Below, piece by piece: positions 7,626 to 31,123 of a stretch of 36,174 nucleotides of DNA. Location: contig JAIQEV010000039.1 in assembly GCA_020073585.1 (NCBI GenBank), positions 1-36,174 on the forward strand, written 5' to 3'. The DNA comes from Terriglobia bacterium (GTDB lineage: Bacteria; Acidobacteriota; Terriglobia; Acidiferrales; UBA7541). The position numbers were made by a program, and so were the translations under genes. A model generated the notes under the pieces. That model was given only the letters and a program-made list of their open reading frames with translations, did no database searches and was not told where the DNA came from. Position 1 is the stretch's first letter. Every line of letters starts with the position of its first letter.

Positions 7626-8249
7626 ATGGCTCTGACCAAGCGGCAGAAGGAAGTCCTCGATTTTCTGGTGTCCTTCGAAACCAAGCACGGCTACGCGCCG
7701 AGTTTCGAGGAGATCGGCAAGGGCCTGAAGCTGACCTCCCTCGCCACCGTGCACAAGCACATCACCACTCTCGAGAAGAAGGGCTTCATCCGCCGCGGCT
7801 ACAACCAGAGCCGCTCCATCGAGATCGTGCAGCTCCCCAAGCCCGTGAAGGAGCAGGTGCTGGACCGCCGCGTCCAAGAACTGCCCCTGGTCGGGCGCAT
7901 CGCCGCTGGCCGGCCGCTGGAAGCGGTCGAGGATCGCGAGACCATCTCCCTCGGCGATTTTGCGCGCGGCGCCACCACCTTTGTGCTGCAGGTCAAGGGC
8001 AGCTCCATGATCGAGGACCACATCCTGGACGGCGATTACGTGGTCTGCGAGCAGACCCAGGTGGCCAATGCCGGCGATATCGTGGTGGCCCTGGTGGGCG
8101 GGGAAGAGGCCACGCTGAAGCGCTTCTACCGCGAAGGCGCGGGGAAGATCCGCCTGCAGCCGGCGAATTCGGAGATGGCCCCGATCGTGGTGCCGGCCGG
8201 CGACGTCAAGATTCAGGGCCGCGTCGTCAGCGTGCTGCGTAAGTACTGA
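7626..8249 (+). CDS. lexA: SOS repressor LexA
   Basis: Transcriptional repressor of the DNA-damage regulon, inactivated by RecA-stimulated self-cleavage. The 207-residue product has an N-terminal winged helix (MALTKRQKEVLDFL, GKGLKLTSLATVHKHITTLEKKG cut into helices at about 31-53) and a C-terminal S24 peptidase domain. Cleavage is predicted between A94 and G95 (RIAAGRP). The catalytic dyad is S127 in GSSM and K165 in ATLKR. The usual Asp of GDSM is Ser here. The start at 7626 is clear: GAGGAGG lies 6 nt upstream and the family begins at this point, while the frame stays open to 7323. The promoter carries its own operator. The pyruvate carboxylase gene follows after 211 nt. Confidence 0.97.
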   Translation: MALTKRQKEVLDFLVSFETKHGYAPSFEEIGKGLKLTSLATVHKHITTLEKKGFIRRGYNQSRSIEIVQLPKPVKEQVLDRRVQELPLVGRIAAGRPLEAVEDRETISLGDFARGATTFVLQVKGSSMIEDHILDGDYVVCEQTQVANAGDIVVALVGGEEATLKRFYREGAGKIRLQPANSEMAPIVVPAGDVKIQGRVVSVLRKY

Positions 8250-24878: not shown

Positions 24879-25751
24879 TTAGCGGGCGGCGGAGGCGATG
24901 CGGCGGTTGACGTATTCCGCGACGTAGTCGTCGAAGGCCTCGCGCAGGCGGTGGGTAACCGGGCCGGGCGCGGCGGCGATGGCGTGCCCGGCGATTTCGC
25001 CGGCACCGATGAGATTGCGGTTGGTCGAGGAGATGAAAACTTCCTCGGCGGAGTAGAGATCCTCGGGGAGCAGGGCCTGCTCGACAATGGGGATGCCGGC
25101 TTCCGGCGCGATTTCAAAGAGGATGGCGCGGGTGATGCCTTCCAGGCAGCCGGAGTTCAACGGGGGCGTATAGACCTTGCCGTTGCGGACGGCGAAGATG
25201 TTGGCCGCGGTGCATTCGGCGACTTCGCCGCGCTCGTTGAGCAGCACCACTTCGTCGAAGCCTTCGCGCTGCGCTTCGGCGACGGCCCAGACGTTGTTGA
25301 GCCAGGAGATGCTCTTGACGCCGGCGAGGGGCGCGGCGGCGTGGCGGCCATGCGGGCGCAGCGCCAGGCGCACCGGCTCGCGGTATTCGGGGAGCGGCGC
25401 GGTGTAGATGATCAGGTCCACCTGGGGGGCCTTTTCGTCGCTCCGCCAGAAGCCGACTTCGTTGTAGACGAGATAGATGCGCGCGCAGCCTTCGCTGACC
25501 TTGTTGGCGCGGATCACGTCCTGGAGATGCAGGCGGACCTTGATGGAGGGGTAGGGCATGGGCAGGCGGATGAGGGCGGCGTCCTTTTCCAGGCGGCGCC
25601 AGTGGCGCTCGTAGGCGAAGGCTTCGCCGCGCACGATGCGCAGGGTGGTGAAGATGCCCCAGCCGCAGATGAGCCCCGCCTGTCCCGGCGAGAGCCGGAC
25701 TTTTTCGATGGGCAGCAGGCTTTCGTTATGAAAGATGTGGCGATGAATCAC
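24879..25751 (-). CDS. Class IV (branched-chain-type) aminotransferase
   Basis: A fold-type IV PLP enzyme: branched-chain amino-acid aminotransferase, D-amino-acid aminotransferase or aminodeoxychorismate lyase. The three cannot be separated reliably by eye. It reads HRHIFHNESLLPIEKVRLSPGQAGL near the start in shorter blocks, with the PLP-binding Lys in GVKSISWLNN (K146) and the cofactor phosphate/tail motif EVAECTAANIFAV (about 176-188), then GCLEGITR. Length is about 290 residues, normal for the family. GTG at 25751 is preferred because GAGG lies 5 nt upstream; an ATG at 25787 gives 12 more residues but has no ribosome-binding site. It is monocistronic and convergent with the receptor gene. 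Confidence 0.85.
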   Translation of the reverse strand: MIHRHIFHNESLLPIEKVRLSPGQAGLICGWGIFTTLRIVRGEAFAYERHWRRLEKDAALIRLPMPYPSIKVRLHLQDVIRANKVSEGCARIYLVYNEVGFWRSDEKAPQVDLIIYTAPLPEYREPVRLALRPHGRHAAAPLAGVKSISWLNNVWAVAEAQREGFDEVVLLNERGEVAECTAANIFAVRNGKVYTPPLNSGCLEGITRAILFEIAPEAGIPIVEQALLPEDLYSAEEVFISSTNRNLIGAGEIAGHAIAAAPGPVTHRLREAFDDYVAEYVNRRIASAAR

Positions 25752-26177
25752 GCGGACCTCGCTGAAAGAACGTCGGTTGCGCTCCATTGTATCCGAAAAG
25801 CGGGGCGGGGGAAGAAGAGGTAAGGAGATAGCGGGGTAAAGAGGTAATGAGGTAAGGAGGAACGGAAGCGGCGAGCGGGGAGTTCTGAAGGGGGAACGTA
25901 CCCCCCACCCCCCGTGTTTTTAGCAAAGAGTGCGCAAAGGATTGATTTATTGGGAGTTGCGTTGCGCTGTGTGCGAAAGAGTGCAAAAGAGTGCGCATGA
26001 GTATGAAACGAAAGGATTTTAAGTCGTGTAGATTTCCGTTGGTACGGAAGAGTGCGGAAGTGTTGATTCTGGAGGTGTTGCGGGAAGGGGAAGGAGTGTT
26101 GCGGGGCGAGCGGTGGCACGGACAAGGGGCGAGGTCCTATCTCCTCCGCGCCAGAGACGAATGAAAGTATAACCCAT

Positions 26178-26207
26178 CCGGTAAACATGGTCAATATAGT
26201 TTACTGG
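26178..26207. repeat. Operator-like inverted repeat at the island edge
   Basis: CCGGTAAAC (26178-26186) and GTTTACTGG (26199-26207) match inverted at 8 of 9 positions around an AT-rich 12-nt centre. The size and symmetry look like a binding site for a dimeric regulator, but no regulator gene is near. It could also be a recombination or insertion scar. Confidence 0.35.
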
Positions 26208-26254
26208 TATTCGAATGGTGCGGCGAAGCGGATTGGAGGGATGGGGAGGGCAGC

Positions 26255-26331
26255 TAAGAGAAAAACCTCACTCCTGCCCCGTAAACCCAACCGGGGCGCA
26301 AGAAACGCGCTTCGCAGGAATGGGGCACCCC
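26255..26331. repeat. Compound palindromic repeat
   Basis: Several short stems are nested or adjacent: GCCCCG (26276-26281) with CGGGGC (26292-26297), CCTGC (26273-26277) with GCAGG (26314-26318), and GGGG-CA-CCCC (26322-26331). It begins CTAAGAGAAAAA and ends GGAATGGGGCA, recalling the repeat at 30.0-30.7 kb (CTAAGAGAAAAGCAG...GGAATGACA), so it may be a related family. Confidence 0.4.
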
Positions 26332-26504
26332 GACCTTGCCGGTCATTAAGTTTGCGCTACTCGTCTTCCCACCCTTCCGTCCAAGCTCGACGGTTGCGGG
26401 ATCTTTCTTCTTAGGGAAAATTCAGGTGATCTAGCTCCAACTCCAACAGCAATATGCATGAACCTCGATATGACACCAAGGCCTTGTAGTACCGGCCCGA
26501 TCAC

Positions 26505-29270
26505 CTATACTGAGACCGGTTTGGTCCGACAGATTCCAACCATATCGCATGAATGACAGGCATCGCACCATTTTGCGTGTTTTGGGAGATTCAGATCACG
26601 AATCTGCTTACCAGCATCAACGACGCGGCTCAACGTGCTTTGAATAACAGACTCCTTTACTTGCTCACGGTGAATATGTCCCACCTCAAGATTATGTATT
26701 TCAACTAAGTCCGCATCTTTTCCGGTTGCCTTCTGATAACCCGCGGCGTAAACCTGAAGCTGGAGACGCGTCATCTCCTGCGGCTGCGTGTCCTCTCCGG
26801 ATTTAAAGTCAACGATCGCTATCTCATTGGTATCAGTCCTTCTAATCAAATCAATTCGGCCGCTGACCACAATGCCTTCAGCTAACTTTAGTTCAATTGT
26901 TTTTTCTGCATGTTCAAGACGCGTAAGGTGTTCACCGTGTTTTTTGAGGTACTGCCTCAGGGCCTTTTCCGCACCTCGAACTGAGTTTTTCCTGACCTCC
27001 TCGTTGGCGAAAGGGAGGTGCAGATGATTCTGTACAAGGTTGGGTACGTCAGCGATCGACGGCACATTGCCGCGGATGGACTCGGCGTGAATCTCGCAAA
27101 GGGCGTCGTGCAGGGATTTCCCAAAGCCCAACGCGCGGTTCACTGGTGAATCGAAGCCGTAGAGAAACCGTAATTTGAAATCGTAGGGGCACTGAAAGAA
27201 GTAACGGAGCTCGCTGAAGGTGATCGGAAGAGGTGAATCAGCGACTCTTGCCTGAGGCTTCAACCGGGGCGGTAATCTTGATGGATCAGTACCGAGCACG
27301 AACTCGCTCTGAGTGAGATCCGTAAAGAACTCCGAAACCCTCCTCTGCTGCTGGTTGTCTGGAATGGGTGCCCAAGAACAGAACAGATACTTTTCCGCCC
27401 GCGTCAATGCAACGTAGAACAGTCGGCGTTCATCTTCCTTCGTGCCCTTGTATCGGTCCGCGTTTGGAACAGCCTTCTCGGGAATGATGTTCCAGATAGT
27501 TCGGCCCCCTTGCCGGCGCGAGGGGAACCGATTTGCCCGTAGGCAAGGTACAAAGACAGCTGGCCACTGCATGCCTTTTGCTTGGTGGACCGTCATAACC
27601 ATGACAGCGTCAGGCCGAGCGTGTGCTGTCTCTTCGGTTTCTTCGGGGTAGTAGTCAGCAGCCTGATGCTCCAGAAATCCTGCAAAATTCGGATAGAGGC
27701 TGTCCGGGCTACTGTGGAAGTGGATACGCTCAAAGTCGGAGATCAGCTGACTGAATTTTCCGAGATTAAAGAAGATTACCTCACCAGTTCGCCCTTTAGT
27801 TCCGACTCGTTCCTCCCTGACCGAAAGTGCTTCGAGAAGATCAAGGTAGACCCGCTGCAGGAAAAGTTGGTTATCATTGCCCAGCGGTATGCGCTTCCGG
27901 ATACCTTGAAGGAATTTGAGGCCGGCGCTAATGTCCTCCTTCCTCAGCCCTGGAAATCCTTCTCCGAGTGACTTGCGGAGAGATACCGCTGAAGTCGCTG
28001 AACAGCCACTTGGAGTGTGGCTTGCCAGAAAGTAGAACACCTCGCGAATAGCCTGCACTTCAGCGGTATCAAATAGTGACTTCATGCCGCCGCCAAGATA
28101 AGGAACTTCCGCATCCCGGAGGGCCTCTACTATCGGCGCGGCATCCTTCCATGCGCGAACCAGAATAGCCATGTCTGAATATGTCAAGCCACGCGCGGGC
28201 TTGTCTTGTTGATCTCGGTACTTGGCCCCCTTGAGCCACTCAATTTTCCTTGCGATCCAGCGGGCCTCCTTATGGATATCAGCAAACTGGAGGGCCAGAA
28301 TGTCGCCTCGCTCAAAGGGCTGGGCGTCAGTGCTCTCCATTTTCTTCGAGAGCCGGTCCGGGTTCTGCTCAACAACCTGGCGTGCCGTGAAAACGATCCC
28401 CTTGCTGCTCCGAAAGTTCTCATTCAACCGTTCTGTCTTAACGCGGGGATAGCGATCAGCAAACGTAATGATGTTCTGCACGTCGCTTCCGCGCCATTGA
28501 TAAATTGTCTGATCGTCGTCCCCAACGACGCACAAGTTTGCGCCGAGGTCCGCAATTTCTCGGATTAACGCCTCCTGAAGTGGATTTACATCCTGATACT
28601 CATCCACGACAAGATACCGCACTGAATTCTTGATCTTTTCTCGCAACTTACGATTAGATTTCACTTCGGCAACGGCGCGGCTCAGCATTCCCGAATAGTC
28701 GAGATATCTCTTTTCGTCCAGTAGCCCTCGATATTTCTCCGCGGCCTCCCGGACTGCGGTTGGGACCGTCCGAGCTTTGACTCCACCCTCCTCCAGCACG
28801 CTGAGCAAAGTCTGATACACACGGGAATCCACCCAACGAGTGAGAGTTCTCCCGTCCAACAAAGGCGTCTCAGTCAGGCCACTCTTCTTGCTATTGCGGT
28901 CAATTAGCAATCTCTGCTGCACCTCGGTCAGGACAGAATATTTTAAATAGTGGTAGACCGGTGGTTGCTGCAATAGGTTCAGGCAATATGCATGGATGGT
29001 TCCGACATATAGTTCCGCAAGTCCTTCGTCCGTGCCAAGATGTTCGAAACAGAGTCGCTGAATTCGATCCTTCAGTTCACCTGCGGCTTTCTCCGTAAAC
29101 GTGAATGCCACAATATTGGCGGGCTTTATTCCAGAGTCTTTCTTCGATTCAAGAATCTTCACGATGCGTCGTGAGATTACCTGGGTCTTGCCGGAGCCTG
29201 CACACGCGATTATTTGAAGGTTCCGATCTATCGTCGCGATGGCTCGCGCTTGAGATTGAGTGTAGTCCAC
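26505..29270 (-). CDS. UvrD/RecB-type helicase fused to Fe-S PD-(D/E)XK nuclease
   Basis: A superfamily 1 DNA helicase with a C-terminal RecB/AddB-type nuclease, 921 residues. Helicase motifs: Q-motif start (DYTQSQARAI), Walker A AGSGKT (24-29), Walker B VVDEYQD (221-227), QTIYQWRG (254-261), RLNENFRS (281-288), TVHQAKGMQWP (560-570) and VALTRAE (620-626). Nuclease: H721 in GKSLHDAL, D807 in GRIDLI, D821 and K823 in IVDFKSG, and QLQVYAAGY (837-845). Likely [4Fe-4S] ligands are C694 (FFQCPYDF) and the cluster C905-x2-C908-x5-C914, as in AddB and Cas4; C902 is an extra Cys. GTG at 29270 is chosen because GGAGG lies 5 nt upstream. Base composition is clearly lower in GC than all neighbours, so horizontal acquisition is likely. 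No AddB, RecC or GajA-like partner is adjacent. Role may be repair or antiphage defence. Confidence 0.93.
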   Translation of the reverse strand: MDYTQSQARAIATIDRNLQIIACAGSGKTQVISRRIVKILESKKDSGIKPANIVAFTFTEKAAGELKDRIQRLCFEHLGTDEGLAELYVGTIHAYCLNLLQQPPVYHYLKYSVLTEVQQRLLIDRNSKKSGLTETPLLDGRTLTRWVDSRVYQTLLSVLEEGGVKARTVPTAVREAAEKYRGLLDEKRYLDYSGMLSRAVAEVKSNRKLREKIKNSVRYLVVDEYQDVNPLQEALIREIADLGANLCVVGDDDQTIYQWRGSDVQNIITFADRYPRVKTERLNENFRSSKGIVFTARQVVEQNPDRLSKKMESTDAQPFERGDILALQFADIHKEARWIARKIEWLKGAKYRDQQDKPARGLTYSDMAILVRAWKDAAPIVEALRDAEVPYLGGGMKSLFDTAEVQAIREVFYFLASHTPSGCSATSAVSLRKSLGEGFPGLRKEDISAGLKFLQGIRKRIPLGNDNQLFLQRVYLDLLEALSVREERVGTKGRTGEVIFFNLGKFSQLISDFERIHFHSSPDSLYPNFAGFLEHQAADYYPEETEETAHARPDAVMVMTVHQAKGMQWPAVFVPCLRANRFPSRRQGGRTIWNIIPEKAVPNADRYKGTKEDERRLFYVALTRAEKYLFCSWAPIPDNQQQRRVSEFFTDLTQSEFVLGTDPSRLPPRLKPQARVADSPLPITFSELRYFFQCPYDFKLRFLYGFDSPVNRALGFGKSLHDALCEIHAESIRGNVPSIADVPNLVQNHLHLPFANEEVRKNSVRGAEKALRQYLKKHGEHLTRLEHAEKTIELKLAEGIVVSGRIDLIRRTDTNEIAIVDFKSGEDTQPQEMTRLQLQVYAAGYQKATGKDADLVEIHNLEVGHIHREQVKESVIQSTLSRVVDAGKQIRDLNLPKHAKWCDACHSCDMVGICRTKPVSV

Positions 29271-29655
29271 ATCAGCCTCCGATTCGTATTACAGCAGTTG
29301 CGAGTTCTGCGTCGAAGCAATCCGGTTCCGATCGACGAGGGCTCATTTCGCACCATTCCTCAGTGCAGACGGCCAGGCTCCTACCACGAATGGAAAAACG
29401 GCCAAGTGTCGAGGCACGCCAGTTAGTGCCGCCTCCTTCTATACATGGGGGTTTATCTACGGTCAATTAGCTGAATACTGACCTGCCGTGTAGAAGTTAG
29501 CTTTTCTAATGCCCTTCCTGCTGAAAATCTGCGCCTGGACGGCCCGCTTTTTCTGTCAAGGGTCTCCCGCTTCGCTCCGATAAACGCGAAAACCACGCGC
29601 CCTTGACAGCGCGGACGGCCAGGCGCCTCGTACCCGCAAAAAGAGCATTTGCTTT
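29271..29655. other. Non-coding flank of the helicase gene
   Basis: No supportable gene. It holds the helicase promoter region (TAATAC on the minus strand about 25 nt from the start codon is a possible -10) and, in its second half, the long inverted repeat at 29531-29626. ACGGCCAGGC occurs twice as a direct repeat (29369-29378 and 29615-29624). Confidence 0.5.
29531..29626. repeat. Long imperfect inverted repeat (MITE- or hairpin-like)
   Basis: The left arm 29531-29562 begins GCGCCTGGACGG and ends CTGTCAAGGG. The right arm 29600-29626 is its inverted copy, beginning CCCTTGACAG and ending CCAGGCGC. The outer 8 and inner 10 bases match perfectly; the middle has mismatches and a small insertion. 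An inner stem TTCGC (29571-29575)/GCGAA (29586-29590) lies in the loop. It is too short to encode protein and sits beside a transposase relic. Confidence 0.6.
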
Positions 29656-29945
29656 TTATGCACCGCTAGAATCCCCCCTATGGGCAAGTGCGTAGGGAAG
29701 TCTGGGGACATCGTAACCCCCTGAGTCATTGGTGTAGTAATCGAGGAATGCGGGTGGAAGCAAGCAGAGTTCGAGCGGGGAGCGAGCCGCTCGATGATTT
29801 GCCAGGGGCTCTGATTCTCTTTGTGCGAGTTGGGTCGCACGAGGTTGAAGTAGAGTTGATAGGTGTGGACGTTGGCAAGAAAATCGCCGCGGCTTCGGAA
29901 CTCTTCCATGTTGAAGAACTCGTCCTGCTCGATGCGTTGGGCGGT
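29656..29945 (-). pseudogene. Transposase (DDE integrase core) C-terminal remnant
   Basis: On the minus strand the segment AQRIEQDEFFNMEEFRSRGD, then FLANVHTYQLYFNLVRPNSH, then KENQSPWQIIERLAP is the C-terminal part of an integrase-core (IS481/IS3-like) transposase. After LAPR the match continues in a different frame as PLELCLLPPAFLDYYTNDSG GYDVPR, so the piece carries at least one frameshift. The N-terminal DNA-binding and most of the DDE domain are missing; upstream sequence is palindromic repeat. It is inactive. Family assignment rests on remembered sequence patterns and needs a database search. Confidence 0.6.
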
Positions 29946-29973
29946 TTGCGTCGAGGAAGAGAGATTTCTCACG

Positions 29974-30020
29974 TTCGTTCGGTCCCGCAAAACCGTCCGG
30001 GATGCAAGAAGCGCAAATGA
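29974..30020. repeat. Repeat C, copy 1
   Basis: Starts TTCGTTCGGTCCCGCAAAAC, continues CGTCCGGGATGCAAGAAGCG and ends AAATGACGGGC. A nearly identical copy lies at 30241-30291, and a partial one (ATCCGGGATGCAGAAGGCG) at about 30358-30376. It is fused on the left to a degenerate end of repeat A (GAGATTTCTCACG). Confidence 0.65.
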
Positions 30021-30248
30021 CGGGCAAAGGCAAAAGACGAAACGGGGAGCCGGGCTTCCCGGCTAAGAGCGCCGGGACGCAGATGAGAGTCTAAGAGAAA
30101 AGCAGATTCCTCACTTCGTTCGGAATGACATGGGTGCCTTGCTGTCCGCCGTGCTGTCGCCCTTGCTGTCCGGGTTGAGGATGAGCTGGTCGATGAATTT
30201 GATGGCCATAAGAGTCTAAGAGAAAAGCAGATTCCTCACTTCGTTCGG
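30017..30248. repeat. Composite repeat unit 1 (D-A-B-A)
   Basis: Four blocks in order. D (30017-30085) contains the hairpin AGCCGGG-CTT-CCCGGCT. A (30086-30130) starts AGAGTCTAAGAGAAAAGCAG and ends CGGAATGACA. B (30132-30210) contains TGCTGTCCGCCGTGCTGTCG. A second A core lies at 30211-30248. The same order recurs exactly 411 nt downstream, so a block was duplicated. Block A read backwards gives the stop codon of any frame reading SFRTK. Confidence 0.8.
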
Positions 30249-30291
30249 TCCCGCAAAACCGTCCGGGATGCAAAAAACGCAAATGACGGGC
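30241..30291. repeat. Repeat C, copy 2
   Basis: Second near-identical copy of repeat C, overlapping the end of the preceding A core, so that A and C form one composite element (ATTCCTCACTTCGTTCGG running directly into TCCCGCAAAACCGTCCGGG). Confidence 0.65.
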
Positions 30292-30427
30292 GTAGGGAAG
30301 ACGCATCTTTCCCAGTCCGCACGGGCTGGGCTAACGTCTGGCGCGGCCCGCGACAGCATCCGGGATGCAGAAGGCGCACCTAGGGCGCTGGGCGGAGGTG
30401 GCTGTGCCACAGAGGCGAGGAGGGCGG

Positions 30428-30726
30428 ATGACAGGCAAAGGCAAAAGACGAGACCGGGAGCCGGGCTTCCCGGTTAAGAGCGCCGGGACGCAGATGAGAG
30501 TCTAAGAGAAAAGCAGATTCCTCACTTCGTTCGGAATGACAGGGGTGCCTTGCTGTCCGCCGTGCTGTCGCCTTTGCTGTCCGGGTTGCCGTGCGCGGTG
30601 TGACGCGCGATGCTGTCCGCCGTGCTGTCGCCCTTGCTGTCCGGGTTGAGGATGAGCTGGTCGATGGATTTGGTGGCCAGGAGAGTCTAAGAGAAAAGCA
30701 GATTCCTCACTTCGTTCGGAATGACA
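30428..30726. repeat. Composite repeat unit 2 (D-A-B-B-A)
   Basis: D (30428-30496), A (30497-30541), a B block with an internal 60-nt tandem duplication (TGCTGTCCGCCGTGCTGTCG begins at 30551 and again at 30611) and a final A (30682-30726). D and A start exactly 411 nt after the same blocks of unit 1. The final A overlaps the 3' end of the GIY-YIG gene. Confidence 0.8.
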
Positions 30727-31123
30727 CGTGCGTTTTGTCACGGAACGACACGTGTGGGTTGTTATCCCGAACATGGTCGCCGGACTTTGGCGAGCGTGGA
30801 GGGATCTGATTTTGGTGTTGAAATGATTGATAGTGGTGTGGGAGGCGTGCGGCTAGGTCCTCCCATGTGGGATTGTGCTGTTCGATCAGATGGATTTTCT
30901 TTTCGCGGCGCCAGCCTTTGATTTCCTTCTCGCGGGCGATGGCGTCATTGATGTGACCGAAAAGTTCGACGTGAACAAGCCGGAAGACGCGATAACGGGT
31001 GGTGAAGCCTGGGATAACGCCTTGGCGGTGTTCGGTCATTCGGCGCTCGAGGTCGTTGGTTACGCCGGTGTAGAGCGAGCGGGAGCGGCTGGCGAGGATG
31101 TAGACGGAAAAGGTGTGCTCCAT
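30707..31123 (-). CDS. GIY-YIG nuclease family protein
   Basis: A small single-domain GIY-YIG endonuclease of the YhbQ/UPF0213-like type, cellular role unclear. In 138 residues it shows V7-Y8-I9 and L17-Y18-T19-G20 (the GIY and YIG strands), TNDLERRMTEH with Arg27/28, and AIAREKEIKGWRREKK holding the likely catalytic Glu65. The core ends near residue 95 (NPTWEDLAARLP). The last 40 residues are low-complexity and are encoded partly by repeat A; the final SFRTK-stop comes entirely from the repeat, as does the duplicated HVSFR. The start at 31123 has GAGG 6 nt upstream. Another copy of repeat A lies directly upstream (31135-31168), so the gene is bracketed by direct copies of one repeat. Confidence 0.85.
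   Translation of the reverse strand: MEHTFSVYILASRSRSLYTGVTNDLERRMTEHRQGVIPGFTTRYRVFRLVHVELFGHINDAIAREKEIKGWRREKKIHLIEQHNPTWEDLAARLPHHYQSFQHQNQIPPRSPKSGDHVRDNNPHVSFRDKTHVSFRTK

What the first reader, a model, noticed from the sequence alone, without database searches (positions are those of the whole stretch)
26350..29500. Solitary low-GC helicase-nuclease with Fe-S cysteines
A single 921-residue gene combines all SF1 helicase motifs with a RecB/AddB-type nuclease (D807, D821, K823) and a Cas4/AddB-like cysteine set (C694, C905, C908, C914). Its base composition is clearly lower in GC than every neighbour, and it sits between a gene-poor junction and a repeat/transposase zone. No AddA/AddB, RecC or GajA-like partner is present. 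A complete helicase plus Fe-S nuclease in one chain, carried as lone cargo, could be a single-gene antiphage or plasmid-restriction system. Motifs are seen directly; the defence role is inference.
Basis: partly seen in the sequence, partly recalled or inferred. Interest (0 to 1): 0.66.

Follow-up and report, generated by a model that had tools for sequence, protein, structure and literature searches.

The report
Orphaned restriction-linked helicase-nuclease (UvrD-Cas4)
A lone, horizontally acquired bacterial gene encodes a DNA-unwinding motor fused to a DNA-cutting enzyme; most relatives sit beside restriction systems that attack foreign DNA, so this is a stray copy of an already described but apparently untested defence-linked protein.

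Summary
ORF 26505-29270 (-, 921 aa) joins a UvrD-type SF1 helicase to a C-terminal PDDEXK_1 nuclease; D807, D821, K823 and C694, C905, C908, C914 are invariant in 30 of 30 aligned relatives. It is foreign: GC3 0.57 against 0.83-0.89 in six neighbouring ORFs, in a ~3.57-kb segment absent from the closest relative; 0 of 16 relatives have it there.

It is not a new kind of protein. Hudaiberdiev et al. 2017 (PMC5704561) described this UvrD-Cas4 fusion as a predicted defence component beside type III Mod/Res or Dcm genes, or stand-alone. Here 27 of 39 motif-bearing loci independent of the models have a methyltransferase within 5 kb, against 1 of 15 plain UvrD controls. The nearest relative (62%) is in such an operon; the window copy is not. 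A second orphan, in a same-genus genome, arose separately (AU p 5e-50). Neither shows decay at conserved sites.

Best reading: an intact restriction-accessory exonuclease motor that has left its operon and probably chews DNA ends made by other nucleases. Self-sufficient single-gene defence is possible but unsupported.

The parts
26505..29270 (-). UvrD-Cas4 helicase-nuclease gene, 921 aa, GTG start
   Evidence: intact frame, family-wide conservation
28449..29261 (-). UvrD-helicase domain (residues 4-274), Walker A K28
   Evidence: Pfam PF00580 E 2.2e-56; K28 invariant in 30 of 30
27369..27770 (-). UvrD_C domain (residues 501-634)
   Evidence: Pfam PF13361 E 1.2e-34
26526..27224 (-). PD-(D/E)XK nuclease domain (residues 683-915) with four conserved cysteines (Fe-S cluster inferred)
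   Evidence: Pfam PF12705 E 1.3e-21; model of residues 676-921 matches AdnA nuclease Z 18.7, AddB Z 16.9, ACE1 Z 16.8; AdnA cysteines align
27189..27191 (-). Cys694, first predicted cluster ligand
   Evidence: invariant in 36 of 36 and 30 of 30
26802..26810 (-). catalytic D821-x-K823 (D807 upstream)
   Evidence: invariant
26529..26558 (-). C905-x2-C908-x5-C914, remaining predicted cluster ligands
   Evidence: invariant in 30 of 30; 90% or more of 36
29276..29280 (-). GGAGG ribosome-binding site, 5 bases before the GTG
   Evidence: sequence
26364..29930 (.). foreign segment (GC 0.525), no counterpart in closest relative G009, which has a different ~650 bp (GC 0.43) at the same junction
   Evidence: blastn and pairwise alignment against G009:C7

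Best explanation
The gene is an orphan member of the UvrD-Cas4 fusion family. Shown: sequence, domains, conserved catalytic and cysteine residues, horizontal acquisition as a single gene, and descent from a branch whose other members mostly sit in restriction-modification operons. Inferred: the protein is a 3'-5' ssDNA motor carrying an Fe-S-stabilised exonuclease, an arrangement like one subunit of AdnAB/AddAB/RecBCD in a single chain. In its usual setting it would load on DNA ends made by the companion restriction enzyme (or on ends of incoming linear DNA), unwind them and degrade the strand, so that cut foreign DNA cannot be repaired or religated. In this genome, which lacks the cognate Mod and Res by search but carries an unrelated type III Mod/Res pair in another defence island (contig C64), it would do the same in trans on ends made by other nucleases.
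For: Domains and residues. Fold: full model pLDDT 88.4, pTM 0.89, matching UvrD (Z 44.0, 462 residues, 2.5 A) and AddA; nuclease-domain model pLDDT 92.2, best matches AdnA (Z 18.7, 231 residues, 3.0 A), AddB (16.9), ACE1 (16.8), Cas4 (14.8), Dna2 (14.2). RM association: 14 of 16 annotated plasmid regions fetched (of 19 records with 80% or more coverage) have a methyltransferase beside or close to it, as has phage H1; 51 of 68 motif-bearing loci by HMM; 27 of 39 independent loci against 1 of 15 controls, Fisher p 3e-5. In the threshold-based four-phylum sample (E <= 1e-70): 25 copies in 7 of 396, 7 of 395, 2 of 398 and 9 of 396 genomes (four of them the centre genomes), 15 with RM or methyltransferase neighbours, 3 at contig edges, 7 without. 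Tree: window sister to L041 (100/100), whose locus has Mod (in two ORFs) and Res. Own genome: no close Mod or Res; type III pair on C64 (PADLOC 2e-173 and 1.7e-115). No decay: 1 mismatch at 99 columns conserved in 90% or more, as in L041 (1 of 98).
Against: No experiment on any member was found, so the exonuclease role and action in trans are inference. The window copy has no RM gene beside it; 12 of the 39 independent loci have none either, so RM is not obligatory. Three close relatives (L224, L262, L264) lack the C-terminal cysteine motif and one (G525) is split into two ORFs, so an Fe-S cluster or intact chain is not always kept. The genome is a 113-contig assembly (96.7% complete), so partners may be unsequenced.
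Confidence: 0.6

Rival explanations
1. Self-sufficient single-gene defence: the protein senses a feature of invading DNA (free ends, ssDNA, replication intermediates) and degrades it or the host DNA without any partner, as proposed by the first reader.
For: Intact and conserved gene without partners in two same-genus genomes from separate transfers; solo copies also form a small Actinomycetota cluster (L272, L274, L275 and edge row L273), so solo existence can last. Hna is a precedent for a single-protein helicase-nuclease defence (PMC13381803, passages), though from another superfamily.
Against: Most relatives are RM-linked. No PADLOC family matches over the full length; hits are to helicase parts of GajB and RTasHel.
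Confidence: 0.2
2. Relic: the gene is the last survivor of a decaying RM operon and has no present function.
For: Mod is in two ORFs in the sister locus L041 and cut to 193 aa in L225 while helicase-nuclease and Res stay long; L262 and L224 have lost the C-terminal cysteines.
Against: Frame intact over 921 codons, start with RBS, no excess of changes at conserved sites; in the window the insert holds no Mod or Res remnant detectable by tblastn.
Confidence: 0.12
3. General DNA repair helicase-nuclease acquired by transfer, unrelated to defence.
For: UvrD/AdnA/AddA-like architecture; RadC beside four relatives; the 2017 authors also allow partial redundancy with RecB.
Against: Patchy distribution (2-9 of about 400 genomes per phylum) and RM linkage.
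Confidence: 0.08

Closest known systems
UvrD-Cas4 fusion family (Hudaiberdiev et al. 2017, PMC5704561)
   Same: Helicase-then-nuclease order, pfam12705 domain, RM or Dcm contexts in relatives, stand-alone members foreseen
   Different: This copy has no RM gene in its contig or cognate in its genome; RadC and sacsin-like neighbours seen here in relatives are not named in that paper's main text
AdnAB (AdnA subunit), AddAB, RecBCD
   Same: Fold of motor and nuclease; four cysteines align with AdnA
   Different: Single chain without a second subunit gene; 921 aa against about 1045 for AdnA; RM-linked rather than a core repair pair
Hna
   Same: Single-protein helicase plus PD-(D/E)XK nuclease in defence
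   Different: Hna is SF2 (DinG/XPD-like) and lacks the canonical Fe-S cluster (passages); this is SF1 UvrD-like with the cysteines
Gabija GajB
   Same: UvrD-like helicase core (PADLOC partial matches)
   Different: No GajA beside it; carries its own C-terminal nuclease
Type III RM with BPTD_3080-family restriction enzyme
   Same: Operon in which the closest relatives of this gene sit
   Different: Mod and Res absent here

Membership tests
UvrD-Cas4 fusion | UvrD SF1 helicase followed by pfam12705 (PDDEXK_1) nuclease in one chain | tested here: met
UvrD-Cas4 fusion | Cas4-type cysteines plus D..DxK active site | tested here: met
   alignment with AdnA and Cas4 profiles
UvrD-Cas4 fusion | groups with fusion proteins found beside Mod/Res or Dcm | tested here: met
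   sister to L041 at 100/100; starred clade of 14 rows, 10 of them RM-linked
UvrD-Cas4 fusion | RM or Dcm neighbour (usual, not obligatory; authors allow stand-alone) | tested here: not met
   no methyltransferase or Res hit within 5 kb of the window gene and no cognate in the genome
UvrD-Cas4 fusion | helicase/nuclease activity and defence role | not testable with these tools
   needs bench work
AdnAB/AddAB/RecBCD | adjacent partner subunit gene | tested here: not met
   neighbouring genes are an aminotransferase, repeats, a GIY-YIG ORF and ribosomal genes
AdnAB/AddAB/RecBCD | equivalog score | tested here: not met
   all NCBIfam matches far below cut-off, e.g. addA 153.7 of 707.65 bits, recB 138.8 of 696.05
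Hna | SF2 helicase core | tested here: not met
   core is SF1 UvrD; Hna definition from passages of PMC13381803
Gabija | GajA OLD-family nuclease beside GajB | tested here: not met
   neighbours as above
Type III RM system | Mod and Res genes adjacent | tested here: not met

The most novel reading that the evidence does not exclude
UvrD-Cas4 is a portable, partner-independent DNA-end-degrading module: it repeatedly leaves RM operons (solo copies need at least 6 label changes on the tree), stays under selection, and boosts whatever endonuclease-based defence the host has, here the unrelated type III system and other defence genes on contig C64.
Probability: 0.25. Interest if true: 0.6.

Novelty: new member of a known kind. 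Interest (0 to 1): 0.36.

Why it matters
If restriction systems carry a dedicated RecBCD-like finisher that also works after leaving its operon, restriction would not end with the cut, and phages would need to block a second step. The family is widespread but rare per genome (2-9 of about 400 per phylum) and no experimental study was found in the searches listed, so the orphan copies offer a clean test: does the protein need its Mod/Res or only free DNA ends?

Tried and rejected
Core repair helicase: rejected by the empty site and the patchy distribution. Hna: rejected after reading passages. Gabija: no GajA. Mod or Res remnants beside the gene: tblastn of 15 partner proteins from five relatives' loci gave nothing credible in window or G009 (best was E 0.005 for a stretch at 7980-8237, far from the gene). 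Transposase origin of the insert: ORF 29556-29990 looks by eye like the end of a DDE transposase, but Pfam, tblastn in plasmids and the own-genome DNA search (only short repeat matches at its right end) did not confirm it. Promoter and terminator scan: no better than shuffles. Nuclease domain as a single query against PDB sequences: only a chance hit; the profile worked. Are solo copies one lineage? Tested and rejected for window plus G009. The tree has long branches and weak deep forks, so only the shallow groupings are used. Context counts: the search HMMs were built from partner proteins of 13 loci; those loci and near-copies (18 ids) were left out of the independent count, 5 duplicates were dropped, loci with under 3 kb on either side were dropped, and 12 family-like rows without the Cys motif were taken out of the control set before counting; without these cuts the counts are 51 of 68 and 2 of 32 (one of those 2, L264, is a family member). 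The 25-copy tally is assembled by hand. No taxon name is known for the window genome.

Full report
What is there. The ORF 26505-29270 (-) encodes 921 residues from a GTG preceded by GGAGG at five bases. Pfam gives UvrD-helicase 4-274, UvrD_C 501-634 and PDDEXK_1 683-915. Three close relatives fail the C-terminal cysteine test (L224, L262, L264). That the cysteines bind an Fe-S cluster is inferred from homology.

Fold. An AlphaFold2 model on a 30-row alignment has mean pLDDT 88.4 and pTM 0.89. Its motor matches solved UvrD (Z 44.0, 462 residues, 2.5 A) and it also matches AddA, AdnA and RecB over longer, looser alignments. The nuclease domain alone (residues 676-921, pLDDT 92.2) matches AdnA best (Z 18.7, 231 residues, 3.0 A), then AddB 16.9, the Argonaute-associated Cas4-family protein ACE1 16.8, Cas4 14.8 and Dna2 14.2. 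A profile of the domain finds AdnA at 4e-12, with the four cysteines in register. So the protein is built like an AdnA-type subunit in one chain.

It is foreign. GC3 is 0.566 against 0.832-0.887 in six neighbouring ORFs of the window, two of them (labelled tsf and C3 in the script, and pyrH by position) chosen by frame and place; rpsB, tsf and the aminotransferase are Pfam-confirmed. The closest relative, G009 (rpsB 98%, aminotransferase 92%), is collinear on both sides: window 24883-26363 and from about 29930 on align at 88-95%, while 26364 to about 29930 has no counterpart; G009 has a different ~650 bp there. In 16 relatives whose aminotransferase-to-rpsB interval was fetched, tblastn finds no copy at E <= 0.01 (one interval, L248, lacks about 350 bp next to the aminotransferase). 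Among 36 genomes of the genus, only G000 and G009 have a full-length match at E <= 1e-40. G009's copy is 47% identical, on another contig, also without RM neighbours.

The family lives with restriction systems. All five first full-length homologues examined (four plasmid, one phage) had a methyltransferase close by. Of 16 plasmid regions fetched out of 19 records with at least 80% coverage, 14 do; the exceptions are H30 (Annamia) and H31 (a Fusobacterium record without annotation). The commonest order is helicase-nuclease, methyltransferase, SF2 or TnsA-N restriction gene. The relatives nearest to the window copy (L041, L043, L044, L122) have a type III-type methyltransferase (PADLOC MTase_III, 6e-109 for L044, 2e-140 for L043) and a restriction gene of the BPTD_3080 family (NCBIfam 1078 bits, above the cut-off of 800, for L043; 576, below it, for L044). 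By HMM, 51 of 68 loci with the cysteine motif have such a gene within 5 kb, and 2 of 32 without it. After leaving out the loci from which the HMMs were made, duplicates, short flanks and family-like rows in the control, it is 27 of 39 against 1 of 15, Fisher p 3.2e-5.

A sample by threshold. Searching about 400 genomes in each of four phyla at E <= 1e-70 gave 7 of 396 (own), 7 of 395 (phylum of L041), 2 of 398 (of L043) and 9 of 396 (of L042) genomes; four of the 25 are the centre genomes. By my reading of their neighbourhoods 15 have RM or methyltransferase genes, 3 lie at contig edges (G175, G1646, G1375) and 7 have none in view: the window, G699, G525, G1483, G1293, G1514 and G1353. G525 is split into two ORFs near a contig end, G1514 shows only 1.5 kb downstream, and G1483 has a 192-aa Mod-like fragment about 5 kb upstream, so some of the seven are unsure.

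Orphaning happened more than once. In a maximum-likelihood tree of 39 rows the window copy is sister to L041 (100/100), which is RM-linked, and the G009 copy to L263 (87/99), also RM-linked; the 'solo' label needs 6 changes. Holding window and G009 together is rejected (delta lnL 355.6, p 5e-50). Neither orphan shows decay: 1 mismatch of 99 columns conserved at 90% or more for the window, 1 of 98 for G009, 1 of 98 for L041.

Possible partners here. The own genome has no close relative of the L044-type Mod or Res; best hits are short and fall on contig C64, an island with an unrelated type III Mod/Res pair, a DrmD-like helicase and a TIR short-Argonaute-type protein. These could supply DNA ends in trans; that is inference.

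What is known. Hudaiberdiev et al. 2017 (PMC5704561; passages and the whole of section 8 read) described UvrD-Cas4 fusions as monophyletic, found with type III Mod/Res or with Dcm (and Vsr), or stand-alone, and predicted an ancillary role in several defence systems. It is the only paper in the library with the term 'UvrD-Cas4'. Searches listed no experimental study of the fusion; a 2020 paper mentions such fusions near EVE-domain genes (PMC7641849, passage). Hna differs (SF2, no canonical Fe-S; PMC13381803, passages). Subscription papers are mostly not in the library.

Verdict. A real, foreign, intact, solitary UvrD-Cas4 gene: a new member of a known kind. The likely job is degradation of DNA from ends, as an accessory to restriction; whether it works alone is open.

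Noticed in passing
L261 358-1068, L262 11411-12127, L268 112-828; L266 10418-11011: RadC-like JAB-domain gene directly beside UvrD-Cas4 in four relatives (Pfam PF04002 confirmed for three, the fourth by eye). The word RadC does not occur in the main text of the 2017 paper.
   Followed up: partly
L044 13378-16713, L121 11129-14302, L267 5185-8418: Sacsin-type ATPase with NO VEIN C-terminal domain next to UvrD-Cas4 or its RM operon in three relatives.
   Followed up: no
L263 2036-5224: AAA_11/AAA_12 helicase with a PLD nuclease domain lies between UvrD-Cas4 and Mod.
   Followed up: no
L041 11056-13660; L225 5220-5801: Mod is in two ORFs (L041) or cut to 193 aa (L225) while UvrD-Cas4 and Res stay long, a possible route to orphaning or an assembly fault.
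   Followed up: no
window 26364 junction; G009 counterpart in L234: The same junction carries a different low-GC (0.43) ~650-bp piece in G009, and the aminotransferase-rplM interval varies from under 1 kb to well over 10 kb in the genus: a variable spot.
   Followed up: partly
window 29974-30774: Repeated 109-177-bp units and a 32-60-bp element, with a weak copy at 26268-26327 on the other side of the insert; short copies occur on other contigs.
   Followed up: partly
G000 contig C64 (L230): Defence island with type III Mod/Res, DrmD-like helicase, PDC-S02- and HEC-05-like genes and a TIR short-Argonaute-type protein.
   Followed up: partly
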